From an uncultured Pseudomonadota bacterium (GTDB lineage Bacteria; Pseudomonadota; Gammaproteobacteria; Methylococcales; Methylomonadaceae), in contig CAIRCR010000297.1 of assembly GCA_903877065.1 (NCBI GenBank), positions 1 through 32,702 of the forward strand: DNA of 32,702 bases, read 5' to 3'. This document shows, piece by piece, positions 4,104-32,702 of this stretch; within the stretch, counting starts at the first letter, position 1; each line of letters opens with the position of its first letter. Under the pieces are notes generated by a model. That model did no database searches. It saw only the letters and a program-made list of their open reading frames with translations, and had not been told where the DNA came from. Position numbers and translations under genes: made by a program.

Positions 4104-5069
4104 TTAATTTTTCTTTTTTGCTATACGGTCAAGTAATTGAATGTATCTAAAGATAATTGATTCTGCGGTTTGTGTTGCGTCGTAAAATTTAAGACCAATA
4201 AATTCTTCAATGCTGTCGTCTTGCTTTATCTCATCACTTTCAATGACTCGCTGCATCATAACCTCCATAGAAACCACGACTTCACCATGATCGGGCATAA
4301 CAATAACGCAATTTTCATATTTAGTGCCTGGTTGTAAAAAACATGAAAATTCTGAATCGACATTGATTGCAGAGCAGCCCGTCATACTGAGATCGAACAT
4401 ACTCATTTCAAATACATTTAGCGACTCTTCATCTGGAACAATCGGGTTTATTTTCCGCTCTTCGAGAAGTGCCTCGCGTTCTTCTTTGGCGACTTCCTTA
4501 TCTTCTGGAGACAGTCTTAAAAATGCTCTGTCAAAGGCTTTTTGTTCAGCGAGCAAAAATTTTTCGATATGTTCAAGCATTCGTACATTTATCTTTTTAA
4601 GAGCAGTCGCATAGTTGATTTTATATTCTGGTTTGGATTCCTCTTTCAACTCGTCATCAGGTGGTGTGAGCCTCATTTTACAAATTGCTCGATTCATAAT
4701 GGGTGTTTTTATGCGATAAGCATTGCGTCTATCGTACCAATATAACGAATCTGGCATTGCCATAACGAAAGCATCATATCCACCGTGTTTTGTTTTTTCG
4801 ACATCCGAGCCTGAAAATGCAACCTGAACACCATTGAATATGGCTGAGAATCTAACCGTTTTGGTAGAAAGCACTTTTGCGTTTAATACTGCCGATGGGC
4901 TGGTGTCAAAAATAACTCTGCCCGTTTTTTGATTGACATTGACGATAGAAGTTAGGATCGTGTCTTTACCGCCCAAAGCGGCACTAATCATACATCTCTC
5001 CTTTGCAAGCACTGATAAATTGTTAATTATCAATGCTTTGTTGCGAACCATTGCTGAATCACCACTCAT
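4104..5069 (-). CDS. YcgR-like PilZ-domain protein (putative c-di-GMP receptor), copy 1
   Basis: N-terminal YcgR-like domain (AALGGKDTILTSIVNVNQKTGRVIFDTSP...), then RRNAYR (RxxxR) and DLSMTG (D/NxSxxG) motifs; plausible SD GAGGTGA. Confidence 0.75.
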   Translation of the reverse strand: MSGDSAMVRNKALIINNLSVLAKERCMISAALGGKDTILTSIVNVNQKTGRVIFDTSPSAVLNAKVLSTKTVRFSAIFNGVQVAFSGSDVEKTKHGGYDAFVMAMPDSLYWYDRRNAYRIKTPIMNRAICKMRLTPPDDELKEESKPEYKINYATALKKINVRMLEHIEKFLLAEQKAFDRAFLRLSPEDKEVAKEEREALLEERKINPIVPDEESLNVFEMSMFDLSMTGCSAINVDSEFSCFLQPGTKYENCVIVMPDHGEVVVSMEVMMQRVIESDEIKQDDSIEEFIGLKFYDATQTAESIIFRYIQLLDRIAKKKN

Positions 5070-5262
5070 TTACATTCACCTCGTAAGTTTAATAAGTTTG
5101 GCTGTTGTCATTCTTTAAAAATGACGTTTTATGTTTTAAAAAAGTTAACACATTTCAGGTACAAGGATCTTGTAATTAGTTTCGTGTAACCATTTTGGAA
5201 AGTTCTTTAAAATCAAACTCCCAATTTGGCGTTTACACGGAAATTTTTACAGTCTCGGTACA

Positions 5263-6219
5263 TCATTTTTTTTTCATTATTCGGTCAAGCAACTGAATAT
5301 ACCGAAATATAATTGATTCTGTCGTTTCTGTTGCGGCTGTGATTTTAAGACCTATAAATTCTTCGATATCGTCATCTTGCTTTATTTCATCTGTTTCAAA
5401 CAGTCGTTGCATCATCACTTGCACTGAAGAAATCGTCACCTCACCGTGTTCGGGCATAACAATAACACAATCTTCATAGTTAAGACCTTCTTGAAAAAAG
5501 TATGAAAATTCTGAATCTATATTGATTGCTGCAAAGCCAGTCATACTCAAATCGAACATACTTATTTCGATAACATCCAATCCGTCTGTACTTGGATTTT
5601 CGATTTCCATTTTATGTGCTTCTGCACGTTGTTCTTCATGCTCTAATTTAGCTTTTTCTTGTTCCTCTGGAGTCATTCTAATTAGCAACTTCTCAAAGGC
5701 TTTCTGTTCATTAGCTAAGTGTTCTTCTTTACGCTCAAGCATACGAACTTTTATTTTTTTAAGCGCAAGATCATAGTTCATTTTGTATTCTGATGAGGAC
5801 TCTTCACCAGGCGCAACAAGCCTTATTTTGCAAACAGCACGGTTCACAATAGGCGTTTTTATACGGTAAGCATTACGGCGATCGAACCAATATAACGAAT
5901 CAGGCAAAGGCATTATGAAAGAATCATATCCAGCGTGTTTTGTTTTCTCAATTTTAGAGCCTGAAAATGCGACTTGAACGCCGTTAAATATCGCTGCAAA
6001 TCCAACATTTTTGGTCATAAGTATTTTTTCGTTAAATACTTTTGACGGGCTAGTGTCAATAATAACCTGACCTGTTTTTTTATTAACGTGGACAATAGCC
6101 GTTAGCATGGTGTCCTTCCCACCCAAAGCCGCTGTTATCATACAACGCTGTTTTGAAAGAACTAATAAATTGTTAATTATCAATGCTTTGTTGCGAATCA
6201 TCGCGGAATCACCACTCAT
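5263..6219 (-). CDS. YcgR-like PilZ-domain protein (putative c-di-GMP receptor), copy 2, paralogous to copy 1
   Basis: Same architecture and start (MSGDSAM.RNKALIINNL), RRNAYR and DLSMTG motifs; aligns with copy 1 over the full length. Confidence 0.75.
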   Translation of the reverse strand: MSGDSAMIRNKALIINNLLVLSKQRCMITAALGGKDTMLTAIVHVNKKTGQVIIDTSPSKVFNEKILMTKNVGFAAIFNGVQVAFSGSKIEKTKHAGYDSFIMPLPDSLYWFDRRNAYRIKTPIVNRAVCKIRLVAPGEESSSEYKMNYDLALKKIKVRMLERKEEHLANEQKAFEKLLIRMTPEEQEKAKLEHEEQRAEAHKMEIENPSTDGLDVIEISMFDLSMTGFAAINIDSEFSYFFQEGLNYEDCVIVMPEHGEVTISSVQVMMQRLFETDEIKQDDDIEEFIGLKITAATETTESIIFRYIQLLDRIMKKK

Positions 6220-27004: not shown

Positions 27005-27370
27005 TTACGCGGATAGTTTTTTAAATGTTTCCAAAACACTTTCACCTTTAAATGGCTTAACAATCCATCCCTTAATACCTGCTGCTTTTCCACGCTCTTT
27101 CATGCTAGGGCTACTTTCTGTTGTTAACATGATTATATTCACAGTGCTATTTTTCAACTCGCTACGAATTTTTTCAACCATTGTTAATCCGTCCATATTA
27201 GGCATATTGACATCACTGAGGATGAGTTTAATGCCTGGATCTGCTTTCAATTTCACTAACCCATCTTTTCCATCGACAGCCGTAATTACATCTAAACCAT
27301 TTTTTTTCAAAAAACCACCAACTTCATCTCTGACAGTGTTTGAATCATCTACAACTAAAATCTTTGCCAT
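27005..27370 (-). CDS. CheY-like single-domain response regulator
   Basis: MAKILVVDDSNTVRDEVGGFL, LILSDVNMPNMDG, IIMLTTESS, GWIVKPFKGE. Start at 27370 with AAGGAG upstream. Confidence 0.93.
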   Translation of the reverse strand: MAKILVVDDSNTVRDEVGGFLKKNGLDVITAVDGKDGLVKLKADPGIKLILSDVNMPNMDGLTMVEKIRSELKNSTVNIIMLTTESSPSMKERGKAAGIKGWIVKPFKGESVLETFKKLSA

Positions 27371-27398: not shown

Positions 27399-28382
27399 TT
27401 AAAATAATTCAAGTTCACCCGAATCAACTAAATCATCAGTTGATATTTGAATTTCTTTGAAATCCTCAGGAGACCAAGATAAATTGAACACGAACCGTTG
27501 ATATAAACTTATTGAATGACCGATTTTTTCATCTAATAGGGTATATTTGAAGCAAAGCTGAGGATTTGAAGAACCGAATGAAATACATTTATGTAAGTGA
27601 TTGATTACGATTGGAACTTGTGATGTAGATCCTGGACCTGCATCGTCATCGGCAATAAAGCGTGTTTTGAAAGCACCCCAGGTAAGATTTGTTACTTCAC
27701 CCAAAATGTCATTTACCGTTCTAAACGTTGCATAATCTACACCACCGATCACGTCATCTAGTTTCAAAACTTCAATGACAGCATCTTCTTCTGTTTGCAA
27801 CATCATATAACCTCGACACCAGCTACTTTCTAACGGAATAAGACTAAATACTTCGCCAAATATTATGCGATCTCTTACGATGTAAGGTGTTTCAGCACTC
27901 GCTTTTAGGTGTTTGAATTGAGTCCCCAAAACGCTTAACGTCATCTCGGCAATTCCTCTTACTAAAGCATTCGGATAAACGAGACTAAAAATATATTCAT
28001 CAATAACATCTTGAAGTGCAGACATATCCTCAATTGTATAAGTTCTACAAAAAATTTTGCGTTGCTTTTCAGGCAAACTATCAAAATTAGATTCTGAAGA
28101 TCTACGCAACACAATAGGTAATTCTGGGCGCACCTCCGATATTTGATACGCTAGTTCCATCGTATCATCGAGTGATTTGCAGTAGCGCTCAGACAACAAG
28201 ATTGCCCCCAAATCGACGTTTGAACTTAAAACGTTCATCACATTGTTTGAATTAACCTTCAAACCAACAAGACCATGTTGGTCACAAAATTGTTTAATTT
28301 GACCAAAACATTCTGAACTATTATCAAGAACTAAAACCTTGCTTACCAGTTGTACTTCATCACCCATATTTAAATCCTCCAT
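27399..28382 (-). CDS. Degenerate receiver fused to a CheX/CheC-like phosphatase domain
   Basis: N-terminal REC-like fold (KVLVLDNSSECFGQIKQFCDQ...GAILLSERY, with Ser at the phospho-acceptor region); CheX signature DILGEVTN (DxxxExxN); C-terminus SGELELF. Confidence 0.7.
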   Translation of the reverse strand: MEDLNMGDEVQLVSKVLVLDNSSECFGQIKQFCDQHGLVGLKVNSNNVMNVLSSNVDLGAILLSERYCKSLDDTMELAYQISEVRPELPIVLRRSSESNFDSLPEKQRKIFCRTYTIEDMSALQDVIDEYIFSLVYPNALVRGIAEMTLSVLGTQFKHLKASAETPYIVRDRIIFGEVFSLIPLESSWCRGYMMLQTEEDAVIEVLKLDDVIGGVDYATFRTVNDILGEVTNLTWGAFKTRFIADDDAGPGSTSQVPIVINHLHKCISFGSSNPQLCFKYTLLDEKIGHSISLYQRFVFNLSWSPEDFKEIQISTDDLVDSGELELF

Positions 28383-28391
28383 CTTCTAATT

Positions 28392-28949
28392 TTAAAAAAG
28401 TTCTAACTCGCCCGTACTTTCTTCAACTTCAGTTCTGTCAACTTTAAAATCTAAAATGCCGTAGTCAAAAACACATAAAGTAGCGTGTATGACAAACGAA
28501 TCATTAACAGTTACTTTGTAATGCTTAACATATCCAGGATTAAGATCTGAAATGAAAGTCGAACACCGTTTCAATAATACATAAGGTGTTGACATACCTA
28601 AAAAATGATAAATATTGTGTAGTTCTCTACTCACAGCACCACAGCAAACGTTTCCAAATTCCAAAAAATTGTCTCGAAAAGTGCTACCTTCCCCAGCGTC
28701 GTCATAGCTATGTTCACTACGATGTGAAAAACGATTTTCTGTTTTGTCATTACTGTTGAAATGAAAAAGCGTTAGAAGTCGAAAAGCCGTTGATGTAGTA
28801 GTAAATACAGCAAACTCAACTTCACAAATTTCTTTTGAATCACTTACCAATTCTATTTCACAAACATCATCAGCTGATGCGACAATATTGGCTTTTATAG
28901 CTCTTTGGAATATGAAATCAAATCCACTTTTCGCATCTTCACTGATCAT
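28392..28949 (-). CDS. CheX/CheC-like phosphatase domain protein
   Basis: DNFLEFGNVCCGAVSREL contains DxxxExxN; C-terminus STGELELF; within the chemosensory-like operon. Confidence 0.65.
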   Translation of the reverse strand: MISEDAKSGFDFIFQRAIKANIVASADDVCEIELVSDSKEICEVEFAVFTTTSTAFRLLTLFHFNSNDKTENRFSHRSEHSYDDAGEGSTFRDNFLEFGNVCCGAVSRELHNIYHFLGMSTPYVLLKRCSTFISDLNPGYVKHYKVTVNDSFVIHATLCVFDYGILDFKVDRTEVEESTGELELF

Positions 28950-28961
28950 AAATTCACTCAG

Positions 28962-29912
28962 CTATTCAGACAAACTATTAAGTAAGTTTTTACAAGTGAC
29001 ATCAACTGTCACAAGAGCTGCAGTAATCATTTTGCCGCCCGCTTGTATGTCTTGAAACGTCACGGTAGTTATCAAATCATTTTTATAAAGATTTTTAGCA
29101 TAACCTTTAGAAAGTTCCTCGGAATCGTTGGCAAGTTTACGAACTTCAGTTGCCACGACGGAAAATCCACGTCCACTTTCACCAGCTCTAGCGGCTTCGA
29201 TTCTTGCATTCAAAGATAAGATACTGACGGTTTGTGCAATCATAGAAAGTTTGTCGTTTTGCTGGTGCATTTCAACATTTTGGTTCATTAAAGAATTCAT
29301 GTCTGTGTGCCAACGTTCAAATACGTCCGAAAATTTAGCTGCCCTACTTGTCTCATCAACTAAATAGGTAACTTTTTCAAACAATTCACGTTTTTCATTC
29401 TTTATGCTCTCTTCCAAACTTCTGATATCCGAATCATATCTATTCTGAAGTTTTTCAATTCGCTCAAGAAGTTCTGAATTTTTTTGCGTAAGAGATTGAA
29501 CATGAGCAGATTCACGATTCAAGTCGGTAATTATTGACTCTAGCTCTTGTTGGCAGTGATTAAGTTCATTTTCACTCTCTTTTGTTGAATTACAAAAATC
29601 AAGCTCGTGCTGTTGCTGGAGATTGCTAATTTGACTGGACAATTGAGATTTTTCACCTTGCAACTGCTTTAATTGCTTCGATTGTTCATCGAAGTCGGTA
29701 ATTTTTAATCGCAACTCACCTTCAACTTCATTCAATTTTTTTTCGATTGCAATAAATTGTCCAGTCAAACGTGAATTTGTTTCTTGATACTCAACTTCGG
29801 CTTCACTCAGCTTTCTTTTATTTTTTCGCATCATAATAGCGACACTAAAGCTAGAAGATAAAATTGATGCAAATAAACATCCCAGTATAAAAATCGGAAT
29901 TGCAATTACCAT
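28962..29912 (-). CDS. MCP-like coiled-coil signalling protein (one N-terminal TM, no HAMP or ligand domain evident)
   Basis: N-terminal [24 protein letters not shown]; long coiled coil; hairpin-tip motif [37 protein letters not shown]. Confidence 0.85.
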
Positions 29913-29962: not shown

Positions 29963-32702
29963 TCATTCTGTGATTACTGCATAGTTCGACGAAAGGTAAA
30001 CGGCAGTTTCAAATGCACGATAGTCAGCACCTTCATTATCGTCTAAGAAGCTAATTTTGACATCGCCACCATCATGTGTAGCAAAACCACGAACTGCATC
30101 CATACCAACCCCTCGTCCTGAAATGTCACTAAGCTGGTTTGCGGTTGATAATCCTGGACGGAAAATGAGTGATGCGATTTGCTCGTCACTCAAAACTTCA
30201 CCTTCTAGTATTTCTCCATCGGCAACTGCTTTTTCACGAATTTTTTTCAAAGCAAGTCCACGCCCGTCATCTTTTATAGATATCTCGAGTTTATTGCCTT
30301 CCATTTTCATTGATAGGTAAATTAAACCCTGTGCGGACTTGCCTTGAGCTAAACGATCAGCTGGCATTTCTAGCCCATGATCAAGAGAATTTCTAAATAA
30401 ATGTGTGAAGATATCCTTGATAATACCGACGCTTTGAGTTTTTAGTAGTAGTTTTCCGTTGTAAATAGACACCTTAGGATTTTCTTTACCTAAACTTTGT
30501 GCTAACGCAGGTAAAGATTCAATAATTGGTGCCAATGCGGTATCAAGATCTTCCGTTCCAAGTAGTCTTAGCGTTTTATGAGCAGTATCTTTTGCCTCAA
30601 TCAAGTCGTGAATATTTGTGTTGCCGACTCTTTCTAATAAGGCAATTAGATCTTGGATATGTTTTTTATCAACCATAATGTACCTTTCGGCACCGCCTTT
30701 TCTTCCATGACCTTTACGACCTAGACTCACTTCATTAACGTTCGCGTAATGCTCAATCAATTGACGAACTGCAGCTAAATCATCAAGCAAACGTACTTGA
30801 TCCCAAGCAATAGTAGAATCGGGCTTGCGTAACTCGCTATATGTCGATTCAATGTCATGAACAGGGTTGGTCAAATTTGTCAAACCATAAGTTCTCGCAT
30901 TCCCTTTTATCGTGTGCATATTTCTAAACATAACGTTAACAACATCTACGCCACCGCCTGGAGTGCTACGAATCAAATTTTCAATTTCATCAATATAAGT
31001 TACGGCAGAGGTAATGAAATCATGGAATTTTTCTTGCTTAACGCCCAAAATTTCACCAATGATTTCTAATTCACGTTTTTGTCCCGCTGCTTCAGCACTC
31101 AATTTTCGTAACTCAGTAACATCTCGCACACACAACAAAATTTGTTCTACAACGTCGTGTTCATTGACTACAGGCGACCAATTTAAATCAAGGGATTTTT
31201 TCACGCCATTAGGCATGGTTTTTTCGATTTCGTTAACGAGTAAATGCTGGTTAAATTCAAAATTCATCACGTCTTCACCTATGCAAGCACCTGAAATCGC
31301 GGCAACTTGAGATGTAGCATCCGAACCTAAATTAGAATTATCAAAAATTAACATCATTAAATCACGCCCTGCAATTTGGTCTGTTTCCAGTATTTTTTCC
31401 AAATAGGCGGAGTATTCAGGCAAAATTCGACCTTGCTCGTCAAAGCTCAACAAACCTTGTGGCATATTTTTGAGCATGGTTTGAATATCGTTGATTTTTT
31501 GTTTGACTAACTTCGATGTTTCCTGAAGTTTTTCAACCATCGAATTGAACGATTGCGCCATACTGCCGATTTCATCATTATGCAAAGAATCAGCTCTCAG
31601 AGATAAATCACTGGTTTCTGCAATGTTTGACATCGTCGCTTCTAGTTCAGAAATTCTGCCTAAAATACGTTTGCCACCAAAAATACAAATCGATATTGCA
31701 GCAACAATTAAGAACAGACAAAATCCCATAACCTGAAGCATTATATGTTCATATAAAAGATATTCGTCAGTGAGTTCGGCTTCAAGTGTCAACAAACGTT
31801 GTTGAAGGTTACCAATTTGTTCACTGACTTTTGCCTGACCTTCTATTTTGTTTTGAGCCACTTTCAAAGCCGTTTCCAAATCCTTATTGTAGTGTTGTAA
31901 CAACGAAGGAATTTCATTGAGTGGTTCACTTGCTTTGTCTTCAGGTTTCTTAGGCTCTGCTGGTTCACCAAAACTCATCGTATTATCGTCTGCTGCCTCT
32001 ACTTTCATAACACCAAGCAAAGGCAAATTTTTAAACTCATTTCCTAACGCAACTAAAACTTGCAAAGGCTTAGTTACATTGTCAGGCGACATTTGTTTCC
32101 GAGACGAAAAGAAGTTTTGCCGCGCCCCTGCAAGATTGATTAACGCAGCCTGTGAATCACTCACCAATTTCAAATATGCCTGAACATTTGCAGTCAATTT
32201 TGAAGATGGTTGATTTGTAGCTTGGTTATCTGCTTGACCCTTTACTTTGCTTTTTAACTTATTTTTTGGCTCAATAACCGACGGATTTGTTGGTTGGGAA
32301 ATGCTCTGAGCTTCTTTTGCGTATGCCAACAGCCTTTGTAGATATTGAGAAAGTTGTTTTTCATTATTTATTAGCAACACTTGGGGGTCAGCTAATTTAC
32401 CCGCTGCGGCTAATTCTATTAGAGTATGCTGTTGCAATTCATCAATCAGACCAATAAACGGAGCTTGTAGTGATGGTGATAAATTATGATTTCCCTCTAC
32501 CTCTGATTTGATTAGATTGAGGTCTTGATCAATCTTTCCAAGTATCGTCGCTTCACCAGTCAATAAATAACTCAAAATTGGCTGACTCACTTGTGTAAAA
32601 ATTTTATCTTTTTGTTCACCAAAAAATTTTACTGATCCAAACGATTGGTCTAGGTGATTTAACGACCAACTAACAGAAATGGCAAAACCGATAATAATAA
32701 CG
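29963..32702 (-). CDS. Membrane CheA-like histidine kinase (sensor region, TM, HAMP, PAS-like, HPt, HATPase); 5' end beyond the window
   Basis: HAMP after MGFCLFLIVAAISICIFGG; HPt FRNMHTIKGNARTYGL; HATPase HLFRNSLDHGLEMPADR, DDGRGL, GRGVGMDAVR. The frame stays open from the ORF-track GTG at 32590 to the window end (VIIIGFAISVSWSLNHLDQSFGSVKFFGEQKDKIFTQ), so 32590 is probably not the start. Confidence 0.88.
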   Translation of the reverse strand, partial: VIIIGFAISVSWSLNHLDQSFGSVKFFGEQKDKIFTQVSQPILSYLLTGEATILGKIDQDLNLIKSEVEGNHNLSPSLQAPFIGLIDELQQHTLIELAAAGKLADPQVLLINNEKQLSQYLQRLLAYAKEAQSISQPTNPSVIEPKNKLKSKVKGQADNQATNQPSSKLTANVQAYLKLVSDSQAALINLAGARQNFFSSRKQMSPDNVTKPLQVLVALGNEFKNLPLLGVMKVEAADDNTMSFGEPAEPKKPEDKASEPLNEIPSLLQHYNKDLETALKVAQNKIEGQAKVSEQIGNLQQRLLTLEAELTDEYLLYEHIMLQVMGFCLFLIVAAISICIFGGKRILGRISELEATMSNIAETSDLSLRADSLHNDEIGSMAQSFNSMVEKLQETSKLVKQKINDIQTMLKNMPQGLLSFDEQGRILPEYSAYLEKILETDQIAGRDLMMLIFDNSNLGSDATSQVAAISGACIGEDVMNFEFNQHLLVNEIEKTMPNGVKKSLDLNWSPVVNEHDVVEQILLCVRDVTELRKLSAEAAGQKRELEIIGEILGVKQEKFHDFITSAVTYIDEIENLIRSTPGGGVDVVNVMFRNMHTIKGNARTYGLTNLTNPVHDIESTYSELRKPDSTIAWDQVRLLDDLAAVRQLIEHYANVNEVSLGRKGHGRKGGAERYIMVDKKHIQDLIALLERVGNTNIHDLIEAKDTAHKTLRLLGTEDLDTALAPIIESLPALAQSLGKENPKVSIYNGKLLLKTQSVGIIKDIFTHLFRNSLDHGLEMPADRLAQGKSAQGLIYLSMKMEGNKLEISIKDDGRGLALKKIREKAVADGEILEGEVLSDEQIASLIFRPGLSTANQLSDISGRGVGMDAVRGFATHDGGDVKISFLDDNEGADYRAFETAVYLSSNYAVITE

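What the first reader, a model, noticed from the sequence alone, without database searches (positions are those of the whole stretch)
27399..28420. Identical C-terminal GELELF tails on two divergent CheX-like proteins
Seen: the proteins end ...LVDSGELELF and ...EESTGELELF, although the rest of their sequences is very different. The codons differ in 5 of 6 positions (GGT GAA CTT GAA TTA TTT against GGC GAG TTA GAA CTT TTT), so the peptide appears to be held by selection rather than by recent copying. Established: short C-terminal peptides act as docking tags in chemosensing (CheR/CheB-binding NWETF on MCPs; the CheZ C-terminal helix binding CheY). Inference: GELELF could be a docking tag for CheY or for the kinase/MCP complex.
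Basis: partly seen in the sequence, partly recalled or inferred. Interest (0 to 1): 0.7.

Follow-up and report, generated by a model that had tools for sequence, protein, structure and literature searches.

The report
Shared docking tail on two phosphatases
Two very different chemotaxis phosphatases made from one operon end in the same six-residue peptide (GELELF), which every relative examined, from methanotrophs to Burkholderia, keeps in some form; it is almost certainly a selected docking tail, but what it docks to is not yet known.

Summary
Two adjacent genes end in GELELF (27402-27419 and 28395-28412, minus strand); four of six codons differ, not five. They are the only two genes in the host genome with that ending. 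They encode a short CheX-like phosphatase (CheXs, 185 aa) and a pseudo-receiver-CheX protein (CheXr, 327 aa). Both lie in an operon with a CheA-like sensor kinase lacking a CheW domain, a membrane-anchored MCP-tip protein and a CheY. Related operons in gamma- and betaproteobacteria keep the tail: 86 of 86 CheXr and 85 of 85 CheXs C-termini examined fit G[EA][LM][EDQ][LMF][FL]. The linkers just before it diverge. The tail survives where CheXr has lost its receiver domain and where CheXr stands alone. Twelve CheX proteins outside this family lack it, and a 369-genome pattern scan found it on no other evident protein. AlphaFold puts both tails on disordered linkers, as expected of a short linear motif. 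Docking on CheY, as CheZ and FliM peptides do, is the best guess. But read-through fusion models did not dock it, and CheY's family-specific residues do not cluster on that face. No held paper mentions GELELF. New variant of a known kind.

The parts
27402..27419 (-). GELELF C-terminal tail of CheXr
   Evidence: Read directly; conserved in 86/86 CheXr homologues as G[EA]L[ED][LMF]F
28395..28412 (-). GELELF C-terminal tail of CheXs
   Evidence: Read directly; 85/85 CheXs homologues keep a form of it: 75 GELELF, 3 GELEFF, 2 GALELF, 2 GELEMF, 2 GELQML, 1 GEMEMF; one GELELF has an extra terminal Q
27399..28382 (-). CheXr: N-terminal pseudo-receiver plus CheX phosphatase domain (E229-x2-N232, P257), disordered linker, tail
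   Evidence: Pfam CheX 1.6e-8, 13/13 homologues, alignment A5, AlphaFold models
28392..28949 (-). CheXs: stand-alone CheX-like phosphatase (E97-x2-N100), disordered linker, tail
   Evidence: 11/13 homologues reach Pfam CheX, best 4.9e-5; invariant E97/N100; AlphaFold model of the CheXs-CheXr read-through matches solved CheX proteins, best TM 0.78
27005..27370 (-). CheY-like response regulator (putative substrate)
   Evidence: Pfam Response_reg 3e-23; closest solved relative V. cholerae CheY4
28962..29912 (-). Membrane-anchored coiled coil with only the MCP hairpin-tip region
   Evidence: Pfam MCPsignal 1e-17 over 80 of 172 profile positions
29963..32590 (-). CheA-like sensor kinase: HAMP, PAS, Hpt, HATPase_c, no CheW/P5 domain; its N-terminus appears to run past the window end
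   Evidence: Pfam; NCBIfam CheA 1e-40; relative in L006 has about 50 further N-terminal residues

Best explanation
GELELF is a conserved short linear docking motif at the end of a flexible acidic linker. It is carried by both CheX-type phosphatases of one chemosensory-like operon, so that two phosphatases with different bodies use the same receptor site. Shown: conservation, restriction to this protein pair, predicted disorder, operon context. Inferred: the receptor is most likely the operon's CheY, so the tail tethers each phosphatase to its substrate (probably CheY-P) and keeps it off the CheY proteins of other pathways, while the CheX domain (E-x2-N) does the hydrolysis. My probability that it is a selected docking motif is about 0.9; that the partner is CheY, about 0.5. 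The confidence given is for the whole statement including CheY.
For: The tail is kept in 86/86 CheXr and 85/85 CheXs of gamma- and betaproteobacterial relatives, down to about 27% identity, while the linker just before it diverges. Synonymous codons vary at tail positions. A pattern scan of 14 operon genomes gave 25 hits: 24 are tails of these two proteins and one lacks a real stop; control 0. A scan of 369 class genomes gave three further off-operon hits, none ending an ORF of 60 aa or more. Twelve CheX proteins outside the operon end without it. Tail regions have pLDDT below 50, beyond the folded CheX domains. The tail persists in 19 REC-less CheXr proteins examined and in two CheXr genes away from the rest of the operon. 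CheZ and FliM peptides from the same genomes (VDDLLASLGF; LLSQAEIDALL) are likewise short acidic-hydrophobic terminal motifs, and CheZ and FliM share one CheY face (PMC3774744). CheY is the shared substrate expected of two CheX phosphatases; the host genome has FliM but no detected CheZ.
Against: AlphaFold of a CheXr-tail-CheY read-through did not dock the tail (tail pLDDT about 40), though the alignment was shallow, CheY unphosphorylated and the tail internal. Operon-specific CheY residues are spread over the whole domain, not enriched on alpha4-beta5-alpha5. Eight of 12 operon genomes also have CheZ. No binding data exist.
Confidence: 0.5

Rival explanations
1. The tail docks on the kinase or the kinase-MCP complex and gathers both phosphatases at the site where CheY is phosphorylated.
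For: Tail, kinase, MCP and CheY co-occur in nearly all loci. Most kinases carry a conserved basic LGRK motif between Hpt and the dimerisation region (9 of 10), a charge match for acidic tails. One operon's MCP itself ends DDDVDFELDF.
Against: In genome G498 the kinases of this type are unlinked to the tail genes and lack an LGR motif. No docking on the kinase was tested.
Confidence: 0.25
2. The tail binds the other CheX protein or the pseudo-receiver, building a CheXs-CheXr complex.
For: Both genes are adjacent and both carry the tail.
Against: The CheXs-CheXr read-through model leaves both tails disordered. Tails persist in CheXr proteins that lost the receiver domain, in isolated CheXr genes, and in CheXs where CheXr is degraded (L033).
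Confidence: 0.1
3. The tail is a ligand for a general factor: sliding clamp (QL[SD]LF-like), a PDZ-like or CheR-like C-terminal peptide reader, or a protease.
For: Superficial likeness to QLxLF and to the E-x-F ending of NWETF (by eye).
Against: The residue at the clamp-motif Gln position is E or A in all 171 tails, never Q. The operon has no CheR or CheB. One CheXs adds a residue after the Phe (L030). The tail is confined to two chemosensory proteins.
Confidence: 0.1
4. Chance, or recent copying between neighbouring genes.
For: The genes are adjacent.
Against: About 2e-4 expected among neighbouring pairs; four of six codons differ; retained in 171 tails with differing flanks.
Confidence: 0.01

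Closest known systems
CheZ C-terminal CheY-docking peptide (...VDDLLASLGF in operon genomes)
   Same: Terminal short acidic-hydrophobic peptide ending in Phe on a CheY phosphatase, after a flexible linker
   Different: CheZ is a helical phosphatase unrelated to CheX; the motif is not alignable; binding of GELELF to CheY is not shown
FliM/FliY N-terminal CheY-binding peptide (LLSQAEIDALL in the host FliM)
   Same: E-[IL]-[DE] core with hydrophobics; FliY is a CheC-class phosphatase with a terminal docking peptide (general knowledge, not tested here)
   Different: N-terminal rather than C-terminal; different sequence register
MCP C-terminal NWETF-type pentapeptide for CheR/CheB
   Same: Conserved C-terminal tag on a flexible linker; such tags can insulate pathways (PMC7698151, abstract seen)
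   Different: Carried by receptors and read by CheR/CheB; here carried by phosphatases in an operon without CheR/CheB
CheX phosphatase family (PF13690; Thermotoga, Desulfovibrio, Vibrio, Shewanella structures)
   Same: CheX profile, fold and E-x2-N motif
   Different: Extra linker plus GELELF tail; CheXr also has a pseudo-receiver; 12 other CheX proteins end without the tail

Membership tests
CheX/CheC-type CheY phosphatase | CheX sequence profile / fold | tested here: met
   Pfam CheX in 13/13 CheXr and 11/13 CheXs; Foldseek best TM 0.78 to 3hm4, though the search does not say which of the two CheX domains in the joined model matched
CheX/CheC-type CheY phosphatase | Catalytic E-x2-N motif on the long helix | tested here: met
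   CheXr E229/N232 and CheXs E97/N100 invariant
CheX/CheC-type CheY phosphatase | CheY-P phosphatase activity | not testable with these tools
   No biochemical data
CheY-docking terminal peptide (CheZ/FliM type) | Short conserved terminal peptide on a disordered linker | tested here: met
CheY-docking terminal peptide (CheZ/FliM type) | Binds the CheY alpha4-beta5-alpha5 face | tested here: inconclusive
   Read-through fusion undocked; CheY specificity positions not enriched on that face
CheR/CheB pentapeptide (NWETF, xWxxF) | Trp at position -3, carried by an MCP, with CheR/CheB | tested here: not met
   Position -3 is Leu (once Met), never Trp, in 171 tails; carried by phosphatases; no CheR/CheB in the operon
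Sliding-clamp binding motif QL[SD]LF | Gln at first position | tested here: not met
   E or A in all 171 tails

The most novel reading that the evidence does not exclude
GELELF is a previously undescribed C-terminal address tag that defines one chemosensory pathway class (CheA-like sensor kinase without CheW domain, MCP-tip protein, CheXs, CheXr, CheY). It lets two phosphatases with different regulation compete for one receptor site and insulates the pathway from the cell's other CheY systems.
Probability: 0.45. Interest if true: 0.7.

Novelty: new variant of a known kind. Interest (0 to 1): 0.58.

Why it matters
A six-residue motif retained in all 171 tails examined across gamma- and betaproteobacteria gives a simple handle on how parallel chemosensory pathways stay separate. 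It also marks a kinase-MCP-CheX-CheX-CheY operon class that I did not find described in the held literature and whose CheXr occurs in 135 of 399 Burkholderiaceae genomes searched. The partner question is directly testable with a synthetic peptide.

Tried and rejected
AlphaFold of two natural read-through fusions (CheXr-CheY from L079, CheXs-CheXr from the window; stops read as Ser only to join the chains) as a stand-in for complex prediction: tails stayed disordered, so weak evidence against the tested partners. Specificity positions of operon CheY against seven other CheY proteins: no cluster on alpha4-beta5-alpha5. Viral-contig scan: no relatives. Sliding-clamp, NWETF and chance readings rejected on sequence grounds. 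Literature: no held paper contains 'GELELF', and the passages read in a CheA architecture survey did not describe this operon. Plasmid records carried no gene annotation at the loci. My first coordinates for CheXs of L080 were out of frame; one search gives the right end (GEMEMF).

Full report
Observation. On the minus strand, CheXr (27399-28382) ends ...DDLVDSGELELF and CheXs (28392-28949) ends ...EVEESTGELELF. Four of six codons differ, not five as stated. A degenerate pattern for the peptide plus stop occurs twice in the whole 3.1-Mb genome, at these genes, with no reversed-control hit. The chance of identical last six residues is about 5e-8 per pair.

What the proteins are. CheXr has a pseudo-receiver (alignment A5 shows no conserved phospho-acceptor Asp at the end of strand 3 and no conserved strand-5 Lys; read by eye) followed by a CheX domain (Pfam 1.6e-8; 13/13 homologues). 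CheXs has no Pfam hit alone, but 11/13 homologues hit CheX and it keeps the E-x2-N catalytic pair. An AlphaFold model of the two joined matches CheX structures. Neighbours are a CheY, a membrane-anchored MCP-tip protein and a kinase with HAMP, PAS, Hpt and HATPase but no CheW domain.

Distribution. CheXr is patchy: not found in the 17 other same-genus genomes, found in 11 of 237 genomes of the family, in a few other families of the class, and in 135 of 399 Burkholderiaceae genomes, including large Burkholderia and Caballeronia replicons. The nearest named relative of the locus is in a Methylobacter genome.

Conservation of the tail. Across the first set of loci (17 CheXr and 17 CheXs) and 69 Burkholderiaceae loci (69 CheXr and 68 CheXs): CheXr 86/86 (40 GELELF, 25 GELDLF, 10 GALELF, 9 GALEMF, 2 GELEFF); CheXs 85/85 (75 GELELF, 3 GELEFF, 2 GALELF, 2 GELEMF, 2 GELQML, 1 GEMEMF). 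One of the GELELF forms has an extra Gln (L030). Linkers just upstream differ strongly between groups (AAVEEQASGELELF, EPVETGALELF, DVGAMVEAGELDLF). Synonymous positions vary. Every match that covers the C-terminal half reaches the last profile column.

Specificity. In 14 operon genomes the pattern gave 25 hits, 24 of them tails of these proteins, the other lacking a real stop. In 369 class genomes three more off-operon hits appeared; none ended an ORF of 60 aa or more. Twelve CheX proteins outside the family lack the tail. The tail persists in short CheXr proteins that lack the receiver (19 examined), in CheXr genes away from the operon (L037; L177/L219), and in CheXs where CheXr has decayed (L033). 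So its function does not need the pseudo-receiver.

Mechanism. Both tails lie outside the folded domains with pLDDT below 50, as expected of a short linear motif. A partner shared by two phosphatases is most simply their substrate CheY. CheZ and FliM peptides from the same genomes offer a precedent, and those two share one CheY face (PMC3774744). Against this, the tail did not dock in the CheXr-CheY read-through model, and CheY's family-specific residues are not concentrated on that face. The kinase-MCP complex remains a serious rival: most kinases carry a conserved basic LGRK motif, but kinases in trans in G498 lack it. The binding partner is therefore inferred, not shown.

Known or new. CheX proteins, CheZ/FliM docking peptides and NWETF tags are known kinds. 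A common C-terminal motif on two CheX-type phosphatases of one operon was not found in the held literature (only that library was searched). I file it as a new variant of a known kind.

Noticed in passing
window 28962-29912 and homologues: The operon's MCP-like protein keeps only a TM anchor, coiled coil and the receptor hairpin tip, with no sensor or methylation helices, although the operon kinase has no CheW/P5 domain to couple to it.
   Followed up: partly
L179-L197 (genus g344, Burkholderiaceae): A group of genomes carries a CheXr that has lost the pseudo-receiver (about 217 aa) but keeps the tail as GALELF/GALEMF.
   Followed up: yes
L035:6081-6896 (-): In one operon the MCP-tip protein itself ends in an acidic tail, DDDVDFELDF, loosely like GELELF.
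   Followed up: no
L033 (G087): CheXr is degraded to fragments while CheXs, CheY, MCP and kinase genes look intact.
   Followed up: partly
G498:C24 and C30 (L140, L141): Two kinases of this type lie on other contigs than the CheX-CheY cluster, suggesting several sensors feed one CheX/CheY module.
   Followed up: partly
L219:6616-7713 (-) (G1198): An orphan CheXr with GELDLF has no CheXs, CheY, MCP or kinase of the family within the 15-kb stretch.
   Followed up: partly
kinase homologues, alignment A9: Conserved basic motif LGRKG between the Hpt and dimerisation regions.
   Followed up: partly
window 4104-6219: Two adjacent paralogous genes (about 320 aa) starting MSGDSAM[VI]RNKALIINNL; possibly flagellar-brake (PilZ-type) relatives.
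   Followed up: no
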